From assembly GCF_028416635.1 (NCBI RefSeq), contig NZ_CP114013.1, forward strand, positions 4,340,001 to 4,404,000: 64,000 bases of DNA, read 5' to 3'. Under the pieces are notes generated by a model that was not told the DNA's origin, did no database searches, and saw only the letters and a list, made by a program, of their open reading frames with translations. The DNA is from Baekduia alba. Lineage in GTDB: Bacteria; Actinomycetota; Thermoleophilia; Solirubrobacterales; Solirubrobacteraceae. Below, piece by piece: positions 35,420-46,916 of this stretch. Each line of letters starts with the position of its first letter. Position 1 is the first letter of the stretch. Made by a program: the position numbers and the translations under genes.

Positions 35420-37084
35420 CTAGCGGCGGGCGACGCGCACGCTGGCGTCGGCCCTCGCCGGCGGCGGCTCGCGGTTGCCCGCGTGGTCGACGGCGATCGT
35501 GTAGAAGCTGTAGCGCCCGCCGTGGCGGCCGCGCAGGCGCATCGAGTGCGCGCGCGTCGTCTTGATCTTGCGGGCGGCGCGGCCGGGGAGCGCGCGCCAG
35601 ATCTCGAAGTGGTCGATGCCGGAGGCGACGACACCGGCGACCGCGTCGTCGGCCCCGCGCCAGCGCAGCAGGATCGAGCGGCCGGTGACCTTCGGGTGCT
35701 GCAGCTGCGAGCTCGGCGCGTGCGCGTCGACCGAGCGGGCGGCGGCCACCGCGGCGCCCGCGTCCAGGATCCCCCAGCCGAGCTCCGGCGTCCACGCGAC
35801 GTCGGGCGGGCGGCTCGCGGTCTGCTTGAGGATGCGCACCACGTCGGTTGGCGGCAGGTCCGGGTTGAGGTGGCGCATCAGCGCGGCGACGGCCGCGACC
35901 TGCGGCGCGCTCATCGACGTGCCGGGCAGGTAGGCATAGCGGTTGTCGCCGTTGAGGGTCGTGCGGCAGCGGCAGGGGTCGATCTTCTTGGCGGCGTCGC
36001 CGCGCTCGAGGTTGGTCGTCTGGGCGGGGAAGGCGCCGAGCAGGCCGGTCTGCCCGCCCGGCCCGTAGGTGCCGTAGGCCGCCATCGAGACCTGCGTGCC
36101 GCGGCCGGCGAACGTCGCGCGCTTGTCCTGGGCGCTGGCGGCCGTGACCGAGAGGCCGAAGTTCTGGTTGATGTCCGAACCGGAGTTGGTCGGCTGGAGC
36201 ACGTTGGCGGGGTCGCCCTGCTCCTGGACGGGGTCGTCGGCGGCCGCGGCGACGAGCACCGCGCCCTTGCCGGCGGCGTACTGGAGGGCCTGGACGATCG
36301 CGGGCGCGGCGGCGAAGCGACCGTCGGTGCCGAAGCTCATGTTGATGGCCTCGGCGCCGTTGTCGGCGGCCCAGATGAGCGCCTGGGCGACGCTGCCCTC
36401 GGAGAGGTCGCTCTTGGCGATCAGGAGGCCGCAGCCCAGGCCGGCGCCCGCGATGCCGGCGCCGTTGTCGTGCTGCGCGCAGGCGAGCGACGCGACGTGC
36501 GTGCCGTGGCCGTCCTCGTCGACGGTCGGCGGGCCGTCGCCCAAGGTGTCGTCGAAGTCGGCGGACGCGATGATCTTGCCGGCGAGCTCGGGATGCGCGC
36601 CGTCGACGCCGGTGTCGATGACCGCGACCTTCGCGCCGTCGCCGCGGGCGAGGTCCCAGGCGGCGGTCAGGTTCTCGCGGGCCGCCCACCACTCGACGGT
36701 CGTGCCGGCCTCGCCGCGCTCGGGAGCGGTGAAGGCCGGGTCGCTGGGGACGTAGCGCAGCGTGAAGCGCCGCTCGGGGCGCACCGAGGCGACGCGGGGG
36801 TCGGCGCGGAGCCGCCGCGCGAGGGCGGCCAGCGACGCGCCCTTGGCCGGGGCGAGGGCGGCGAGCCGCAGCTGCGGCACCGTGACCGCGGCAGACCGGG
36901 CGCCGGCGCTCGCCGCGATGGCGTGGACGGCCGAGGCCTGCGCCTTGCCCGGCGACGGCGCCTTGACGGTGACCAGGAGGCGACCGGTGGTGTCGCCCGG
37001 GGCGCTCGCCGCATGGGCGACCGCGGGCGCCGCCGCCATGAGCGAAGCCCCGATCGCCGCCGCGGCTGCGAGCGCCGATCGCAT
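35420..37084 (-). CDS. Secreted S8 (subtilisin-like) serine protease
   Basis: 554 residues. A signal peptide (to about AHA, residue 25) and an inhibitor-I9-like propeptide (about 30-115) precede the catalytic domain, with Asp in VAVIDTGVDG, His in GHGTHVASL and Ser in GTSMSAPQVAA. A C-terminal fibronectin-like domain (about 460-554) follows. It is an extracellular protease activated by propeptide removal. It is monocistronic, with convergent neighbours on its 3' side and the MIP18 gene upstream. Confidence 0.94.
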   Translation of the reverse strand: MRSALAAAAAIGASLMAAAPAVAHAASAPGDTTGRLLVTVKAPSPGKAQASAVHAIAASAGARSAAVTVPQLRLAALAPAKGASLAALARRLRADPRVASVRPERRFTLRYVPSDPAFTAPERGEAGTTVEWWAARENLTAAWDLARGDGAKVAVIDTGVDGAHPELAGKIIASADFDDTLGDGPPTVDEDGHGTHVASLACAQHDNGAGIAGAGLGCGLLIAKSDLSEGSVAQALIWAADNGAEAINMSFGTDGRFAAAPAIVQALQYAAGKGAVLVAAAADDPVQEQGDPANVLQPTNSGSDINQNFGLSVTAASAQDKRATFAGRGTQVSMAAYGTYGPGGQTGLLGAFPAQTTNLERGDAAKKIDPCRCRTTLNGDNRYAYLPGTSMSAPQVAAVAALMRHLNPDLPPTDVVRILKQTASRPPDVAWTPELGWGILDAGAAVAAARSVDAHAPSSQLQHPKVTGRSILLRWRGADDAVAGVVASGIDHFEIWRALPGRAARKIKTTRAHSMRLRGRHGGRYSFYTIAVDHAGNREPPPARADASVRVARR

Positions 37085-39959: not shown

Positions 39960-41684
39960 TTACGCGCGCGTGCGTACTTTGGCCGTGCGGCTCTGAGGTG
40001 TCGTGTCGGCGTCGCCCGCGTAGCTGATCGTCACGGTCGCCGCCCGCTGCGCGGCGTAGCCGGGCGTCAGGGTCAGCGTCGTCCTGAACGCGCGACGGCG
40101 GATCGCGACGCGCTTGGTCAGCGTGTGCGTCCGGCCGTGGATCCGGGCGCGGTAGCGGATCGTGACCTTGCCGGACGCCTTGCTCGACACGCTGCCGCCG
40201 ACGCTGATCTTGCGGCCGACGCGGCGCAGCGTCGTGAGCTTCAGCGTGGGGCTGCTCTTCTTGATCGCCGGCGGCGGGGGCGGTGTCATGCCTGGCGGAG
40301 GCGTGATCGGTGGCGTCGGGACGCAGGCGCAAGCCGGCGGCGGATCGACGGTGGGCGGCGGCGTGTAGGCGAGCGGGATCGTCGCCGCGGTCGCGGGGTC
40401 CGCGTGGCCCAGCGCGTCGCGCAGCCAGACGCGCAGCGTCGCCGCGCCCGCGTGCGGCAGGGTGATGTCGCCGAGCCCGGTGAGCGACGCTGCCACCTGC
40501 GTCGCGCCGCAGATCCCGTCCTGGCAGACCTGGTACTGCGCCTGGTCGATCGGCGAGCCGGCGTCCGCGGGCAGCGACCACGTCGCCGAGAAGCTGTTGA
40601 CGTCGGCCGCAGCGCGCGGAGACGCGAGGCTCACCGGCGGAGCGGGCGCGGCGTTGTCGACCAGCAACGGCGCACCGCGCTGCACGGTCGTGGTGTTGCC
40701 CGCGGCATCCTCGACGCTGAGGACGATCGTGTGCGCGCCATCGGCGAGCCCCGCCGTCGGCAGCCCGACCGCTCCCGTCGGCTCATCCGTGCACGGCCGC
40801 GGTCGCGTGTAGCTGCAACCGCGCTGCAGCGTCGCGACGAGCGAGCCATCGGCGTAGACCCGCGTGGCGGCGATGCCGGTGAGATCGTTCGACGCGACCG
40901 CGAGCGGCAGCGTGCCCTGCGACCAGCCGGCGGTCGTCCACCCGTCACCGGTCGGGGTCCCGATGGACGGCGCGGTCGGGTCGGCGATCGTGAGGAACGC
41001 GCTGAAGATCATCACCTCCGCGTAGGTGACCGTGGCGCCGCCGATGCAGACGTTGTCGGGGTTGGGCCGGCAGTAGACGCCGGCGATGACCTTGTTGGTC
41101 GAGAGGTTCTGGAGGTCGGTGTAGGCCAGAACGTCGTTCCCGAAATTGCCGTCGTTCGGATACCAATCGGTCCCACCGACACCGCACACGTGGTGACCCG
41201 CCGCAAAGTCACACGAGTCGATGATCGCGTTACTCGCGCCCACGGCTGTGTACGGCTGCCAATGGTCTTCGAGTTGCTTGTACACCGATCGCCACCAGCG
41301 GACACGCGACACGACCGTGCCGGCAAGCGGCGAGAAAGAAAGCTCAGCACGATCGCCTGGCGCCGCGTCGGTGCCGCCCACGTCGCCCAAGCGATCGCTT
41401 ATCCAAAGGCCCGCCTGTTGGAACTCGTTCGCCGCCCCGCCAGGGACGAGTCTCGACGGCGGACAATCGACGCCGGACGCCAGCGCCGTCGGGTTGTTGT
41501 TGGTGGTCTCGCTCCACCCTTCGGCCGATCCCGTCTCACCGCAGGACTGGATGACGAACCCGCCGCCGGCGACGAGCGGACCGACGTCGCCGGGCACGGG
41601 ACGGGGTTGGCCGGACGCAGCGCTGACCGCCGCCAGCGACACGGCGGTGATCAACGCAGTCAGATGTCCAAGACGCACCAGCAT
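39960..41684 (-). CDS. Large secreted protein with Ig-like repeats, last gene of the sigma-fusion cluster
   Basis: 574 residues with a signal peptide (to about SAASG). The N-terminal domain (about 30-230) contains Cys and many Trp/Asn. An Ig-like region follows, with the hallmark LADGAHTIVLSVEDAAGN near 315, then a second beta domain, a Pro-rich hinge, and a final Ig-like domain of basic strands (ISVGGSVSSKASGKVTIRYR). It shares this layout with the protein at 43225-45291. It is probably a cell-surface or matrix protein. Only 24 bases separate it from the upstream subtilase. Confidence 0.75.
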   Translation of the reverse strand: MLVRLGHLTALITAVSLAAVSAASGQPRPVPGDVGPLVAGGGFVIQSCGETGSAEGWSETTNNNPTALASGVDCPPSRLVPGGAANEFQQAGLWISDRLGDVGGTDAAPGDRAELSFSPLAGTVVSRVRWWRSVYKQLEDHWQPYTAVGASNAIIDSCDFAAGHHVCGVGGTDWYPNDGNFGNDVLAYTDLQNLSTNKVIAGVYCRPNPDNVCIGGATVTYAEVMIFSAFLTIADPTAPSIGTPTGDGWTTAGWSQGTLPLAVASNDLTGIAATRVYADGSLVATLQRGCSYTRPRPCTDEPTGAVGLPTAGLADGAHTIVLSVEDAAGNTTTVQRGAPLLVDNAAPAPPVSLASPRAAADVNSFSATWSLPADAGSPIDQAQYQVCQDGICGATQVAASLTGLGDITLPHAGAATLRVWLRDALGHADPATAATIPLAYTPPPTVDPPPACACVPTPPITPPPGMTPPPPPAIKKSSPTLKLTTLRRVGRKISVGGSVSSKASGKVTIRYRARIHGRTHTLTKRVAIRRRAFRTTLTLTPGYAAQRAATVTISYAGDADTTPQSRTAKVRTRA

Positions 41685-41708
41685 TCGAGCGGTCGGCGAG
41701 GGAAGGCC

Positions 41709-43163
41709 CTACGTCCTCGGATGGACGATCAACGGCGCCGACGCTTCCCGCACCCCGGTTGGATCACGGTAGATGATCGACACCTGATTTAGCGTTCCCG
41801 AGACCCGAGTGCGCAGATGGTCCGCACGAATACGCACCGAGCGAGCGAGCGTCGGGAAGACCCCGCCCCGCTTGCGGGCATACACCTCGACCCGTGCTTC
41901 GATCCCCTTCGGCTTGCCCTTGAGCACGAGGGTCAACGTGCCGCGGCGAACGGTCAACGAACGGACGACCGGCCTGCCGAGCCGAGAACGCTGCTGCCCA
42001 TCGCTCGGGACGATGCGCGCCGGCTCGGGGATGGACGACGGCGGCGCCGCCTCAGGCGCCGGCGCATCGATGACCGTCGTGGGCGCGTGCGCCTCCAGAG
42101 ACGCCGTGGACGGCGTGGTGACGATCGGCGCCGGCACCGCGTCGTGCCCGGCGGCGAGCTGGGGAGCGAAGCCGGCACCCGTGAAGGCCGCCGCCACGTC
42201 GAGATACGGCCCGGCCGCGGTGGACCGCGCGTTGGCCCTCACGACCTGCTCGGCGGCGTCCACCCCCAGGCCCGGATCGAGACCGCGCAACTGCGTGAGG
42301 ATCCCGGCGACGAACGCCGTCGCCTCGCTGGAGCCGCTGGCCCATGCGGCGTTGCCGGTCGCGTCCGGGCGCGCGACGTCGAGCGGACAGCCGGGCGCCC
42401 ACAGATCCAGCTCCGGCCCCCACGAGGCGAACCCGCACCGAGCGCCGTCGTTGGCGGCGGCGCCGACGGCGAACGCCGGCGGGTAGCCCGCGGGCCAGTC
42501 GACCGTGCCGGTCGCGCCGTTGCCGGCCGCCGCGACGACGTTGAGGCCGTGGAGCCGCGCGTTGTCGATCATGTCCTGGAACGCGTTGCGCTGGGTGGTG
42601 TTGGCGGCGATGCCGCCGATGTCGCCGCCCAGGCTCAGCGAGACGACCTTGATGTTGTAGGCCGCGCGCTTGGCCATGCAGGTCTGCACCGCGGCCTGGA
42701 CGTCGAAGCCCCCGAAGGACGTGCCGTCGCTGGAGGCGCGCACCGACACGACGTCGATCGACGGCGCGGCCCCGACCATCCCGAACCCGTCGTGCGGTGC
42801 CGAGGCGATCATCGCCATCAGCGTGCCGTGCTTGCCCGCGTTGAGGTCGGCGCCGGTGCCGCCGTCCGTGGCGAAGCGAGCGACCACGTTGGCGGTGTCG
42901 GGCGTGACGTCGTTGCCGGTGTCCACGATGCAGACCGCCGCCCGTCGGGCCGGTGCCGGGATCCAGGTCGAGTCGGTCGCGCGTGCCGCGGCCGCCTGGC
43001 CCGTGAAGACCTCCTCGGCATGGGCCGGGAAGGCGACGGCGAGCGCGAGCAGCAGGCCCGAGCCGAGCGCGCGGAAGATCCGGCGGCCGTGGCCCGCCGC
43101 CGAGGTCGCGCGAGGATGGGAGCCCGGAGCTTCCGACACGCCGCAACCCACGGCGGCGGGCAT
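41709..43163 (-). CDS. Secreted subtilase (S8 family), atypical active-site context
   Basis: 484 residues from ATG 43163. A signal peptide (about 30-51, GSGLLLALAVAFPAHA) is preceded by a Gly/Ser/Arg-rich segment. The catalytic domain has Asp in CIVDTGNDV, His in GKHGTLMAMI and Ser in ASGSSEATAFVAG, where the usual GTSMA-P is degenerate. A Pro-rich tail and a basic beta-strand region (RSLTVRRGTLTLVLKGKPKG) end the protein. No propeptide is obvious. It lies inside the sigma-fusion cluster between two related secreted proteins. Confidence 0.85.
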   Translation of the reverse strand: MPAAVGCGVSEAPGSHPRATSAAGHGRRIFRALGSGLLLALAVAFPAHAEEVFTGQAAAARATDSTWIPAPARRAAVCIVDTGNDVTPDTANVVARFATDGGTGADLNAGKHGTLMAMIASAPHDGFGMVGAAPSIDVVSVRASSDGTSFGGFDVQAAVQTCMAKRAAYNIKVVSLSLGGDIGGIAANTTQRNAFQDMIDNARLHGLNVVAAAGNGATGTVDWPAGYPPAFAVGAAANDGARCGFASWGPELDLWAPGCPLDVARPDATGNAAWASGSSEATAFVAGILTQLRGLDPGLGVDAAEQVVRANARSTAAGPYLDVAAAFTGAGFAPQLAAGHDAVPAPIVTTPSTASLEAHAPTTVIDAPAPEAAPPSSIPEPARIVPSDGQQRSRLGRPVVRSLTVRRGTLTLVLKGKPKGIEARVEVYARKRGGVFPTLARSVRIRADHLRTRVSGTLNQVSIIYRDPTGVREASAPLIVHPRT

Positions 43164-43224
43164 CGCCCGCCGCCGCGCGTCGCTGGTGAGCGGGGCGCCG
43201 AGGCGGCCCGCGACATCGGTGGCG

Positions 43225-45291
43225 CTAGCGGCCAACGGTGACCTTGACCGGCTTGGAGCTGACCGACACGTAGGGGTAGTCGACCTGCCCGCTGACGATC
43301 TGCACACGCAGGCGATAGACCACCGCGCGGTTGGTCCGCGTGAACCGGTAGCCGTACGAAAAGCGGCCGTTCTTGTCGGTCTTGATCTGGGCGAACGGGC
43401 GCCAGCGCTTGCCGTCCTTCCACTGGACCGCCAGCGCGACGCCGCGCTTCGGCACCAGCCCGCCGGCCAGCGCGCCGCGCAGGGTCACGGCCTGGCGGTT
43501 GTGCAGGTGCTTGCGGTTGGCCTTCAGCGCGACCTTCCCCTTGACCAGCACCTTCAGCGTGGCGGTGGCCCGCGCGACCGCATCGTCGGAGTACATGCGG
43601 TAGCCGACGGTGATCCCGCGCGACGCGCCCTGGGCGAGGCGGATCGTCGCGTGGCCGGCGCCGTCGGTCGTGACGTCCGAGGCCACGGCCGGGCGACCGC
43701 CGGTCTTGGTGGCGATCTCGAGCTTGGCGTCGGCGATCGGCTTGCCCGTCGTCGTGCAGGTCAGCTCGAGCTGGCCCATCGACGCCTTGCCGAAGCCGAG
43801 GCTCAACCGGCCGCCGCTGACGTGCTGGAACCGCAGCGTCGCCTTCTCGCCCGGGCATGCCACGCCTGCCGCCTCGCCGACGACGTGGCCGATGATCGTG
43901 TGCGTGGACGTGCTGCTGTTGTTGGTCGTCGTCGTTGTCGTGGTGGTGGTGGTCGGAAGGGCCGGCACGGTCACGACCGGCGTCGGAGCCGGAGGATCGG
44001 TCGACGGCTTGTCGGTGACCTCGGTGGCGCTCTTGGGCACGGTGACCTCGCCCGACTTGGCGGAGTAGACGGTTACGGAGTCGGCGACGTTGGTCGCCGT
44101 GCTGGCGAGCTTCAACGTGTGGCCGACGTCGTCGGACGTCGGGGTGTAGCTGAGCGTGCTGGCATCCGGGATCTGCGCGCAGTTGCCACCGTCGCGGTCA
44201 CAGCGGAGCCAGGCGTACGCCATCGCGAGACTTGGGCCGGTCCACGCTCCGCCAGACAGGAAGGTCATCGCGACTCCAGCGTGCGGCGCCGAGAAAGCGT
44301 CAAAGCTCGCGTCTGTTTTGCTGATCACCGGAACCGCCGTGTTCACCGGCGGATGGTTCGCCACCAGCTTCGTCTCCGGCCCCCACACCAGCACCGAATT
44401 GCCCGCCGCATCTTCCAGCGTGACCTTCAGCGAGTGGTTGCCGTCCGCCAAGGCCGACGTGTCCAGCGTCGCCGCGGCGGTGGCCGAGAGCAGGCACGGC
44501 ACGTTGCGGTCGTACTTGCGCGAGTCGAGGTCGCGGCAGTGGCCGCCGTTGCCGTCGACGACGGTGTCGGTCACCTCGGTCGCGCCGTCGAAGATCCGCG
44601 CCAGCGACAGCCCGGAGCCTAGGTCCGTCGCCGGGAACGACACGCCCACCGACCCCCTCAGCTTCGCCGCGGACGTCAACGCGCCGCTCACCGAACCGTG
44701 CGTCGGCGCGTAGTTGTCGTTGAGGCGCATCGTGACGCCGCTGATCCGGTAGGACGCGTTCTCGTTCGCCACGCACGTGTGCGGACCGCCGCACTGGAGC
44801 AGGAACTGCAGCGAGGATCCGCTCACGTCCGCCGAGTAGAAGCCGGCGCCGTTGTGGGCCGGCACGTCGACGAAGTAGTTGCGCGAGGCGTCGCGGCCGA
44901 TCGTGTTCCAGTCGCCGCCGCCCAAGCCGGCGACCTCGTGGAGCCAGTCGATGTGGTTGAGCGTGGTGTTGGCCGGTGCCGCGAACGAGAACATCGTGTA
45001 CTCGGGCGCCATGAACACGGTGCGGCCACCGCCGACGTTCCAGGTGCCGACGGCCCCGGCCGTCGACATCGACGCGCCGACGTAGCCGCGGCCCTGGGCG
45101 TCGCTCGAGACGCTCCAGCCTTCGGCGTTGGACCATCCGGGCATGAACGACATCACCTGGTAGGTGCCGGCGTTCGACATGGGCGCCATGACGGCCAGGC
45201 CGACCGCCGCGAGCAGCGTCGCCGCGCCCGCGCGCAGCAGGGCCATGGGGTTGGGAAGAGGCAAGGTGAGTCCTTTCGAATGCATGTTCAT
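43225..45291 (-). CDS. Large secreted beta-rich protein with a poly-Thr linker
   Basis: 688 residues from ATG 45291; the stop of the sigma gene is immediately upstream. A hydrophobic export segment (ALLRAGAATLLAAVGLAVMA) precedes a lectin-like N-terminal domain (about 40-200, with LQCGGPHTC). An Ig-like domain ends SALADGNHSLKVTLEDAAGN. A second domain (AYAWLRCDRDGGNC) is followed by a Thr-run linker and carbohydrate-binding-like or Ig-like domains at the C-terminus. The layout parallels 39960-41684. It is a likely surface or matrix protein. Confidence 0.78.
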   Translation of the reverse strand: MNMHSKGLTLPLPNPMALLRAGAATLLAAVGLAVMAPMSNAGTYQVMSFMPGWSNAEGWSVSSDAQGRGYVGASMSTAGAVGTWNVGGGRTVFMAPEYTMFSFAAPANTTLNHIDWLHEVAGLGGGDWNTIGRDASRNYFVDVPAHNGAGFYSADVSGSSLQFLLQCGGPHTCVANENASYRISGVTMRLNDNYAPTHGSVSGALTSAAKLRGSVGVSFPATDLGSGLSLARIFDGATEVTDTVVDGNGGHCRDLDSRKYDRNVPCLLSATAAATLDTSALADGNHSLKVTLEDAAGNSVLVWGPETKLVANHPPVNTAVPVISKTDASFDAFSAPHAGVAMTFLSGGAWTGPSLAMAYAWLRCDRDGGNCAQIPDASTLSYTPTSDDVGHTLKLASTATNVADSVTVYSAKSGEVTVPKSATEVTDKPSTDPPAPTPVVTVPALPTTTTTTTTTTNNSSTSTHTIIGHVVGEAAGVACPGEKATLRFQHVSGGRLSLGFGKASMGQLELTCTTTGKPIADAKLEIATKTGGRPAVASDVTTDGAGHATIRLAQGASRGITVGYRMYSDDAVARATATLKVLVKGKVALKANRKHLHNRQAVTLRGALAGGLVPKRGVALAVQWKDGKRWRPFAQIKTDKNGRFSYGYRFTRTNRAVVYRLRVQIVSGQVDYPYVSVSSKPVKVTVGR

Positions 45292-45294
45292 CAA

Positions 45295-46533
45295 CTAAGG
45301 CTGGGGTGCGAACTCGCCCGAGGACGAGTCGGCGTCGGGCCCGACCGGCACCGCGACCGGGCCAGGCTTGGGCGAAGGCGAAGACGTGGAGGTCGCGACG
45401 ACCCGCGGCGCCGTCGCGAGCACGACCACCTCGTGGCCGCGCGGCTTGAGCTCGTGCGCCGAGCGGGCGACCCGCGCGACCTTGTGCTGCGCCTTGGTCG
45501 GCGCGGCCGCCGCGTGCCGGACCTTCGTCGCCCGCGCCGCGTAGGCCCGACGCGCCTGCGTGGCCGCCGGGAGCCTGGGAGCCGCCGCGCGAGCCACGAC
45601 CGCCGGGCGCGCCGCACGCGGCGCGGGTGGGCGCTCGTGCTGGTGCGTGTGGTGGTGCACCGCGGCCGTCCCGCCGCCCACCGCCACCGCACCGGCCGCC
45701 AGGACGCCGGCCAGCTTCGCGCCGCCCGCGCTCAGGACGCCCGCGCCGCCAACCGTGTCCGCGCCGCCCGGCACGAGCCGCTCGACCAACCCGGACAACT
45801 TCGCCCCCACGCCTGCGAGCCCGACCGGCAGCACCGCCGCCAGCGGCGGCGACGCGTCCTGGAGGCCGCGCAGCGTCGCGCGGCACGCCGCGCAGTTGCG
45901 CAGATGCGGTCGCGCGTCGGCCATCTGGGCGGCCGTCGCCTCGCCGTCGACGATCGCCGAGAGCACCGGCTGCCAGCGCTCGCACTCCGCGCCGGTCTCG
46001 ATCCCCTCGAAGCGCTCGAGGAAGCGCTTGCGGCCTTCGGCCAAGCACCGATTCACTTTTGTCGCCGAGAACCCGGTGATCTCCGCGATCTCGTCGTAGG
46101 AATGCCCCAAGGCCTTCAGCCAGACCGCGCGGAGCTCGTGCGGCTTGAGCCGCTGCAGGGCCTCGGCGGCTCGCGTCGCGCGGTCGACGGTCAAGGCGCG
46201 CTCCTCGGGCGTCGAGACGTCCGGCGCCTCGTGGCGGTCGTAGTCGACGTCCTCGGTCGACACCACCGCCGACCGTGTCCTGCGCAGCTCCTTCGCCTCG
46301 TGCTTGACCACGACGTGCAGCCACTTGTGGACCGAGCGCGGGTCGAGCGTCGGCGCGCGGCGCAGCAGGATCTCCATGCTGCGCTGGTAGGCGTCGTGCG
46401 CGTCGTCCGCGCACAGGCTGTGCCGGTAGGCGACGCGCAGCAGCGACTCCGCGTGGGTCGCCACGGTGCGTAGGACCAGCTCTTGCGCTTGTTCGTCGGT
46501 GAGCCGGGCGCGTGCCGGCGCGAGGTTCTCCAT
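45295..46533 (-). CDS. ECF-type sigma factor fused to a zinc-finger anti-sigma-like domain and a membrane/extracytoplasmic tail
   Basis: 412 residues. Region 2 covers about 18-88 (AYQRSMEILLRRAP), and region 4 about 118-175 (HSYDEIAEITGFSATKVNRC). Directly behind is a zf-HC2/ZAS-type zinc finger, HLRNCAAC with His210, Cys214 and Cys217, as in anti-sigma factors. A weak Gly/Ala hydrophobic segment follows (about 268-292), then a His-rich patch (HHHTHQHE) and a long Ala/Arg/Pro tail. The sigma factor thus seems to carry its own inhibitor and membrane tether. It heads a run of three secreted-protein genes, its probable targets. Confidence 0.85.
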   Translation of the reverse strand: MENLAPARARLTDEQAQELVLRTVATHAESLLRVAYRHSLCADDAHDAYQRSMEILLRRAPTLDPRSVHKWLHVVVKHEAKELRRTRSAVVSTEDVDYDRHEAPDVSTPEERALTVDRATRAAEALQRLKPHELRAVWLKALGHSYDEIAEITGFSATKVNRCLAEGRKRFLERFEGIETGAECERWQPVLSAIVDGEATAAQMADARPHLRNCAACRATLRGLQDASPPLAAVLPVGLAGVGAKLSGLVERLVPGGADTVGGAGVLSAGGAKLAGVLAAGAVAVGGGTAAVHHHTHQHERPPAPRAARPAVVARAAAPRLPAATQARRAYAARATKVRHAAAAPTKAQHKVARVARSAHELKPRGHEVVVLATAPRVVATSTSSPSPKPGPVAVPVGPDADSSSGEFAPQP

Positions 46534-46916
46534 GTCCCGTCCCTGGGTCTCGTTGTCCGTCCGTGGTGATGAGGGCCAGACGCCTCACTTCTCGCCCCCC
46601 GGATGTCCGAATGGCGACAATCGCGCCCAACAGTGAGCGACGCAACGAGGTATCGCGGCGGGGCCGGCACCACCCGATGAGACACCGACGTCTCCTTCCA
46701 CGATCCACCCCATCCCCCAGTCCGCGTCCGGACAGCCACCATGTGCCGATCGCCACGTCGAAGTCCGCAATTAGCGGCACTACGACGTCCCAGAAGAGCT
46801 CATTGAGCATTCGGAGACGTTGTTCACGTGCGGACCACCAACCGTCCAGGCAACGTCCAGACACATCCCCGGTTCTTGGTAGCCCGCTCGCCACCTGCGC
46901 CCTCAGGCGCTCGGCG
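46534..46916. other. Gene-free leader region upstream of the sigma-fusion gene
   Basis: Nothing I can call a gene. The base composition is less GC-rich than the surroundings near 46760-46850. It should contain the promoter of the sigma-fusion cluster. A minus-strand frame spelling MLNELFWDVVVPLIADFDV is open at 46812 but continues as a shadow of the sigma gene, so it is not called. Confidence 0.4.

What the first reader, a model, noticed from the sequence alone, without database searches (positions are those of the whole stretch)
39960..46533. Self-inhibited sigma factor heading a secreted-protein cluster
One polypeptide joins sigma regions 2 and 4, a ZAS-type zinc finger (His210, Cys214, Cys217), a hydrophobic segment, a His-rich patch and a long tail. 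The next three genes on the strand encode two similarly built secreted beta proteins and a subtilase. A release step (proteolysis or redox at the zinc finger) could free the sigma domain to express surface proteins and a protease, possibly a local envelope programme.
Basis: partly seen in the sequence, partly recalled or inferred. Interest (0 to 1): 0.65.

Follow-up and report, generated by a model that had tools for sequence, protein, structure and literature searches.

The report
Tethered sigma factor with secreted partner
A bacterial gene switch (an ECF sigma factor) carries its own built-in inhibitor and a long tail ending in a conserved short motif, and across a whole order of soil and water bacteria it is often encoded directly before a secreted protein of an unnamed family, which suggests a two-gene surface-signalling unit that no paper I found describes.

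Summary
45295-46533(-) is one 412-aa protein: sigma regions 2 and 4, a complete ZAS zinc site (C184-H210-C214-C217, invariant in 54 relatives), an Ala/Gly-rich hydrophobic segment and a low-complexity tail. Two related secreted proteins and a subtilase follow on the strand.

New: (1) The gene is an old ortholog found in 46 of 54 genera of the order. Its immediate downstream gene is a secreted protein with the same undescribed N-terminal domain in 24 of 61 loci, across families, often with a 4-bp ATGA overlap. The subtilase is local. (2) The extreme C-terminus carries a conserved E-[FML]-x motif; the His patch is local. Paralogs with this tail also precede partner genes. (3) A conserved ECF-like promoter (GGGGCGAR-N14..17-CCT) precedes the sigma gene, so autoregulation is likely. 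(4) Membrane insertion is not secured: weak hydrophobicity, no AlphaFold helix.

In relatives, six different large-serine-recombinase elements, one a myovirus-like prophage, split this gene at one codon, as skin splits sigK. The window copy is intact.

Best reading: a one-component, cis-inhibited, probably membrane-tethered ECF switch driving its own operon. The kind is known (ECF48/52/53); the motif, partner domain and integration hotspot appear new.

The parts
45295..46533 (-). ECF sigma factor fused to ZAS, hydrophobic segment and tail (412 aa)
   Evidence: orthologs in 46 of 54 genera of the order
46270..46464 (-). Sigma region 2 (residues 24-88)
   Evidence: Pfam PF04542; AF2 pLDDT mostly above 90
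46024..46167 (-). Sigma region 4 (residues 123-170)
   Evidence: Pfam PF08281; model residues 104-182 match sigma-4 of SigL (3hug_A, Z 11.1, 2.6 A, 79 residues)
45880..45984 (-). ZAS zinc-finger domain, ligands C184, H210, C214, C217
   Evidence: PF13490 E 2.9e-6; all four ligands invariant in 54 relatives; AF2 pLDDT about 95
45658..45720 (-). Hydrophobic Ala/Gly/Val segment (residues 272-292), possible membrane helix
   Evidence: KD 1.81; dG about +2.4, approximate; AF2 under 50 pLDDT
45637..45657 (-). His-rich patch (HHHTHQH), not conserved
45298..45657 (-). Low-complexity Ala/Pro/Arg-rich tail (residues 293-412)
45298..45318 (-). Conserved C-terminal motif, GEFAPQP here (EFGP, EFGFE or EMGLE in relatives)
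   Evidence: E407 invariant in 17; 45 of 59
46571..46598 (-). Conserved ECF-type promoter-like motif GGGGCGAGAAGTGAGGCGTCTGGCCCTC
   Evidence: 17 of 55 sigma upstreams against 76 of 15212 background windows
46051..46062 (-). Codons T158-K159-V160-N161; equivalent of the attB core where mobile elements insert in relatives (unoccupied here)
43225..45294 (-). Secreted partner protein: signal peptide, GTYxV domain, Ig-like region, C-terminal beta domain
41709..43163 (-). Secreted S8 subtilase (likely start near 43163; ORF runs from 43307)
   Evidence: PF00082 E 7e-25, mycosin-like TIGR03921 below cut-off
39960..41684 (-). Second secreted protein of the partner type with Ig-like domain

Best explanation
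A one-component ECF switch. The ZAS domain directly after sigma region 4 holds the sigma part inactive in cis (inferred from anatomy). The hydrophobic segment probably anchors the protein in the membrane, with the Ala/Pro-rich tail outside and its E-F-x end motif serving as a docking or cleavage-recruiting site (inferred). A signal, through proteolysis or loss of zinc, frees the sigma part, which recognises the GGGGCGA..CCT promoter in front of its own gene and transcribes itself and the coupled secreted partner, and in this genus also a subtilase and a second partner-type protein (inferred). Shown here: the fusion, invariant zinc ligands, conserved C-terminal motif, conserved upstream motif, and a conserved gene pair with overlapping reading frames. 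Not shown: inhibition, topology, release trigger, promoter use, and what the partner does (output, or ligand or sensor of the tail).
For: ZAS ligands invariant in 54 relatives. Secreted partner directly downstream in 24 of 61 loci, about 15 with a 4-bp overlap counting other secreted neighbours. C-terminal motif in 45 of 59 relatives; 56 of 1295 distinct genes scanned end in it, most of them these sigma fusions. In the own genome, EF-tailed sigmas have a partner in 3 of 4 cases, the eight other fusions in none. Partner genes elsewhere again follow EF-tailed genes (L298, L305, L308, L311, L312, L314). Promoter-like motif 17 of 55 against 0.5% background. AF2 sigma-2/sigma-4 placement is nearer to anti-sigma-bound structures (4nqw 6.3 A, 1or7 9.0 A) than to RNA-polymerase-bound ECF ones (18-24 A). 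The fused ZAS plus TM design is described for ECF48/52/53 (PMC8999054; PMC5826349).
Against: The segment is weakly hydrophobic and not modelled as a helix, and the tail is rich in Arg/Lys, against the positive-inside rule if it is outside. pTM of the sigma-ZAS core is only 0.59, so the domain arrangement is not settled. Many relatives, notably the small-genome clade g10, have the fusion without a neighbouring partner. Genus g27 and G195 keep a sigma without ZAS or tail. The promoter motif gave no clear regulon beyond the sigma gene itself.
Confidence: 0.6

Rival explanations
1. The protein is wholly cytosolic. The ZAS acts as a redox or zinc switch in cis (like RsrA on SigR), the small-residue segment is a spacer, and the basic tail with its E-F-x motif binds a cytosolic partner.
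For: Weak hydrophobicity and no AF2 helix; basic tail; complete zinc site.
Against: Paralogs have a more hydrophobic-looking segment here with paired cysteines. L305, a non-sigma protein upstream of a partner gene, has an evident membrane helix followed by a tail ending in EFGYEC. The neighbours are secreted.
Confidence: 0.22
2. The C-terminal half does not inhibit; sigma activity is set by transcription alone and the tail only tethers or stabilises it.
For: Relatives with bare sigma exist (g27, G195), and an IMG/VR phage contig carries a bare sigma with nearly the same recognition helix.
Against: Four zinc ligands invariant across families; ZAS domains are established anti-sigma modules (review PMC8999054).
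Confidence: 0.1
3. The local subtilase (41709-43163) is the site-1 protease that releases the sigma part.
For: Same operon in the window and in G010; homologue after the 3' half in G007.
Against: Absent from most orthologous loci that keep sigma, ZAS, tail and motif.
Confidence: 0.06

Closest known systems
ECF52 sigma factors (SCO4117, Streptomyces coelicolor)
   Same: Single chain with sigma, zf-HC2, membrane segment and Pro-rich tail; actinobacterial; proposed release from the membrane by proteolysis (PMC5826349)
   Different: No carbohydrate-binding domain was found at the end; instead a short E-F-x motif and a coupled secreted partner gene
ECF48 and ECF53
   Same: C-terminal ZAS plus one or two TM helices (PMC8999054)
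   Different: Group models not available here, so assignment is open; motif and partner are not mentioned in the passages read
IutY (ECF243, Pseudomonas putida)
   Same: Sigma and anti-sigma in one polypeptide, released by Prc and RseP (PMC8999054)
   Different: Iron-starvation cell-surface signalling; no ZAS or partner of this kind known to me
skin / gin gene-intervening elements (sigK, gerE)
   Same: In relatives, large-serine-recombinase elements split a transcription-factor gene at one site (PMC5595907; PMC5025042 abstract)
   Different: Target is an ECF sigma gene of Solirubrobacterales; regulated excision not shown; window copy uninterrupted

Membership tests
ECF (group IV) sigma factor | Regions 2 and 4, no region 3 | tested here: met
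   Pfam and TIGR02937 over cut-off
ZAS (class I) anti-sigma domain | Hx3Cx2C with an upstream C or H ligand | tested here: met
   PF13490 over cut-off; C184, H210, C214, C217 invariant
ZAS (class I) anti-sigma domain | Packs between sigma 2 and sigma 4 | tested here: inconclusive
   AF2 pLDDT 90 but pTM 0.59
ZAS (class I) anti-sigma domain | Binds zinc and inhibits its sigma | not testable with these tools
   needs biochemistry
ECF52 | Carbohydrate-binding domain after the Pro-rich region | tested here: not met
   No Pfam or NCBIfam match of that kind in the tail
ECF48/ECF53 | Membrane helix after ZAS | tested here: inconclusive
ECF48/ECF53 | Match to the group's sequence model | not tested
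   group models not in these libraries
skin-type gene-intervening element (relatives only) | Site-specific recombinase element inside the gene | tested here: met
   six loci with a large serine recombinase at one core; the window copy is intact
skin-type gene-intervening element (relatives only) | Regulated excision restores the gene | not testable with these tools
   no reads or expression data
S8 subtilase (41709-43163) | Peptidase_S8 domain | tested here: met

The most novel reading that the evidence does not exclude
A two-gene signalling module of Solirubrobacterales: a cis-inhibited ECF sigma whose extracellular C-terminal E-F-x motif is read by, or docks, the co-translated secreted GTYxVxxC-domain partner, so that partner level or ligand controls release. 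The same sigma gene is a preferred integration site for different recombinase elements that could switch the system off reversibly.
Probability: 0.3. Interest if true: 0.72.

Novelty: new variant of a known kind. Interest (0 to 1): 0.55.

Why it matters
It offers a testable unit, in a little-studied order, linking a tethered sigma factor to a specific secreted partner. It defines a conserved end motif, a partner domain without a Pfam or PDB match, and a candidate promoter. It also shows an ECF sigma gene used repeatedly as an integration site by different large-serine-recombinase elements, comparable to skin in sigK and a possible source of integrases for these bacteria.

Tried and rejected
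A DNA pattern for EFGFE before a stop found nothing; it was badly designed, requiring an extra codon. Promoter regulon search: 9 matches against 2 in the control, only the sigma promoter convincing. Phage records: no relative of the sigma or of the phage-contig sigma. PDB and Pfam for the partner domain: nothing significant. Idea that tail-less sigmas in g27 have a separate anti-sigma next door: none seen. VIA-align covered mostly residues 10-182, so the ZAS fold was barely tested by structure comparison. Gene calls outside the window come from my own GC-frame script, so counts of neighbours are approximate.

Full report
Setting. The window lies in a 5.86-Mb single-contig genome. Close relatives found by sequence are Solirubrobacterales (Conexibacter, Svornostia, Paraconexibacter and many metagenome genomes). 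The genome has about 70 sigma genes.

Observation. 45295-46533(-) encodes 412 residues with Sigma70_r2, Sigma70_r4_2 and zf-HC2, all over the curated cut-offs. The zinc site is complete: C184, H210, C214 and C217 are invariant in 54 aligned sequences. After it come a hydrophobic segment (272-292), a window-specific His patch and a low-complexity tail. The next reading frame starts at the base after the stop codon.

It is not a lone oddity. About ten sigma genes of this genome carry C-terminal ZAS-like and/or hydrophobic extensions. The window protein has relatives at E 1e-9 or better in 165 of 232 genomes of the order, 46 of 54 genera. In much of the family the sigma gene sits near a conserved 151-aa gene and an FxsA gene. 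The design of sigma plus ZAS plus membrane segment is known from ECF48, ECF52 and ECF53 (PMC8999054), with SCO4117 the studied case (PMC5826349).

First, the tail ends in a conserved E-[FML]-x motif: E407 is invariant in 17 aligned sequences, and the motif is found at the end of 45 of 59 full-length named relatives. Of 1295 distinct genes in the loci held at that time, 56 end in the motif and most are these sigma fusions. Second, the conserved neighbour is the first secreted gene. An iterated profile of its N-terminal domain finds it directly downstream in 24 of 61 loci, including two paralogous loci of this genome, commonly with a 4-bp overlap. The profile was seeded with and iterated on the same set, so the count is of a family recovered, not of an independent test; the independent check is the search of whole genomes with alignment A4, which found the domain in 17 of 20 genomes. 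Alignment A4 shows Ala-Gly at the mature end, two invariant cysteines and a GTYxVxxC start; no Pfam family and no significant PDB sequence matches. In this genome three of four EF-tailed sigmas have such a partner and none of the eight other fusions does; this is a small-sample association. Partner copies elsewhere are also preceded by EF-tailed genes in six of the sampled cases, one of which (L305) is not a sigma but a membrane protein with the same tail end. Copies in the small-genome clade g10 are not.

Third, a bipartite motif GGGGCGAR-N14..17-CCT[ACT] lies upstream of the sigma gene in 17 of 55 loci against 76 of 15212 background windows. In the window it is at 46571-46598. The sequences are related and the motif was noticed on the same set, so the p-value (2.7e-25) overstates the case, but the surrounding intergenic DNA has diverged. 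A stricter pattern gave nine matches in the genome against two for the control, without a clear regulon. The simplest reading is autoregulation of the sigma operon.

Structure and topology. AlphaFold2 models the sigma and ZAS core well (pLDDT 90 over residues 1-240) but pTM is 0.59. The relative placement of regions 2 and 4 is closer to anti-sigma-bound sigma factors (4nqw 6.3 A over 137 residues; 1or7 9.0 over 155; 6in7 9.0 over 152) than to polymerase-bound ECF ones (18-24 A). This is suggestive only. The hydrophobic segment has KD 1.81, an approximate insertion energy of +2.4 (FxsA control -0.9) and no helix in the model. Paralogs have a more hydrophobic-looking version with paired cysteines. 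I therefore rate membrane tethering as likely but unproven.

Interrupted relatives. In G007, G141, G137, G016, G126 and G218 the gene is split at the codons for T-K-V-N in region 4 (core ACGAA|GGTCAAC). In each a large serine recombinase gene abuts the junction. Five were confirmed by Pfam as Resolvase plus Recombinase, four of these also with the Zn ribbon; the sixth (G218) was read from its translation only. Both junctions were seen in G007, G141 and G137, one junction in the others. The five compared recombinases share 26-44% identity where they align, so these are separate arrivals, in two families of the order. The G126 element holds terminase, portal, head, sheath and tape-measure genes; the G137 element an FtsK-like gene. 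G055 shows a 3' half with the same core. The 3' halves in G007, G137 and G055 keep the end motif, so insertion is recent or reversible; nothing here decides which. The analogy is skin in sigK and gin in gerE (PMC5595907). The window copy is intact.

Verdict. The mechanism remains inferred. The subtilase and the His patch are local decoration.

Noticed in passing
L041, L042, L043, L046, L049, L292 (G007, G141, G137, G016, G126, G218): Large-serine-recombinase elements, one a myovirus-like prophage, inserted at one codon of region 4 of the orthologous sigma gene; skin-like hotspot.
   Followed up: partly
L045:14440-15660 (-) and L051:2085-3302 (+): In G005 and G009 the sigma gene (residues 1-146) is fused in frame to the C-terminal half of the 39960-41684 homologue, the middle of the operon deleted; both frames open, dN/dS about 0.5-0.6; promoter motif kept in L051.
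   Followed up: partly
L282:4371-4871: A 32-kb IMG/VR viral contig encodes a 166-aa sigma with regions 2 and 4 only and nearly the same recognition helix (GWTYTKVNRCITEGR), without ZAS or tail.
   Followed up: partly
L305:2117-3175: A non-sigma membrane protein whose tail ends PPEFGYEC, overlapping a partner-domain gene: the tail motif and partner may pair independently of sigma.
   Followed up: no
L291, first bases of contig G217:C192: Next to a sigma gene broken near the same codon, a reverse-frame fragment reads like a TIR-domain protein; possibly cargo of another element.
   Followed up: no
L285-L288, L290: Genus g27 and G195 carry a bare sigma of about 180 aa next to a nucleotide-sugar epimerase/decarboxylase-like gene, with no adjacent anti-sigma.
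   Followed up: no
window 35420-37084 (-): A second secreted subtilase-like protein of 554 aa close to the cluster but outside the operon.
   Followed up: no
L186:7697-11232 (own genome near 4.44 Mb): Paralogous sigma with degenerate zinc ligands but intact EF tail, overlapping by 4 bp a partner-type secreted protein.
   Followed up: partly
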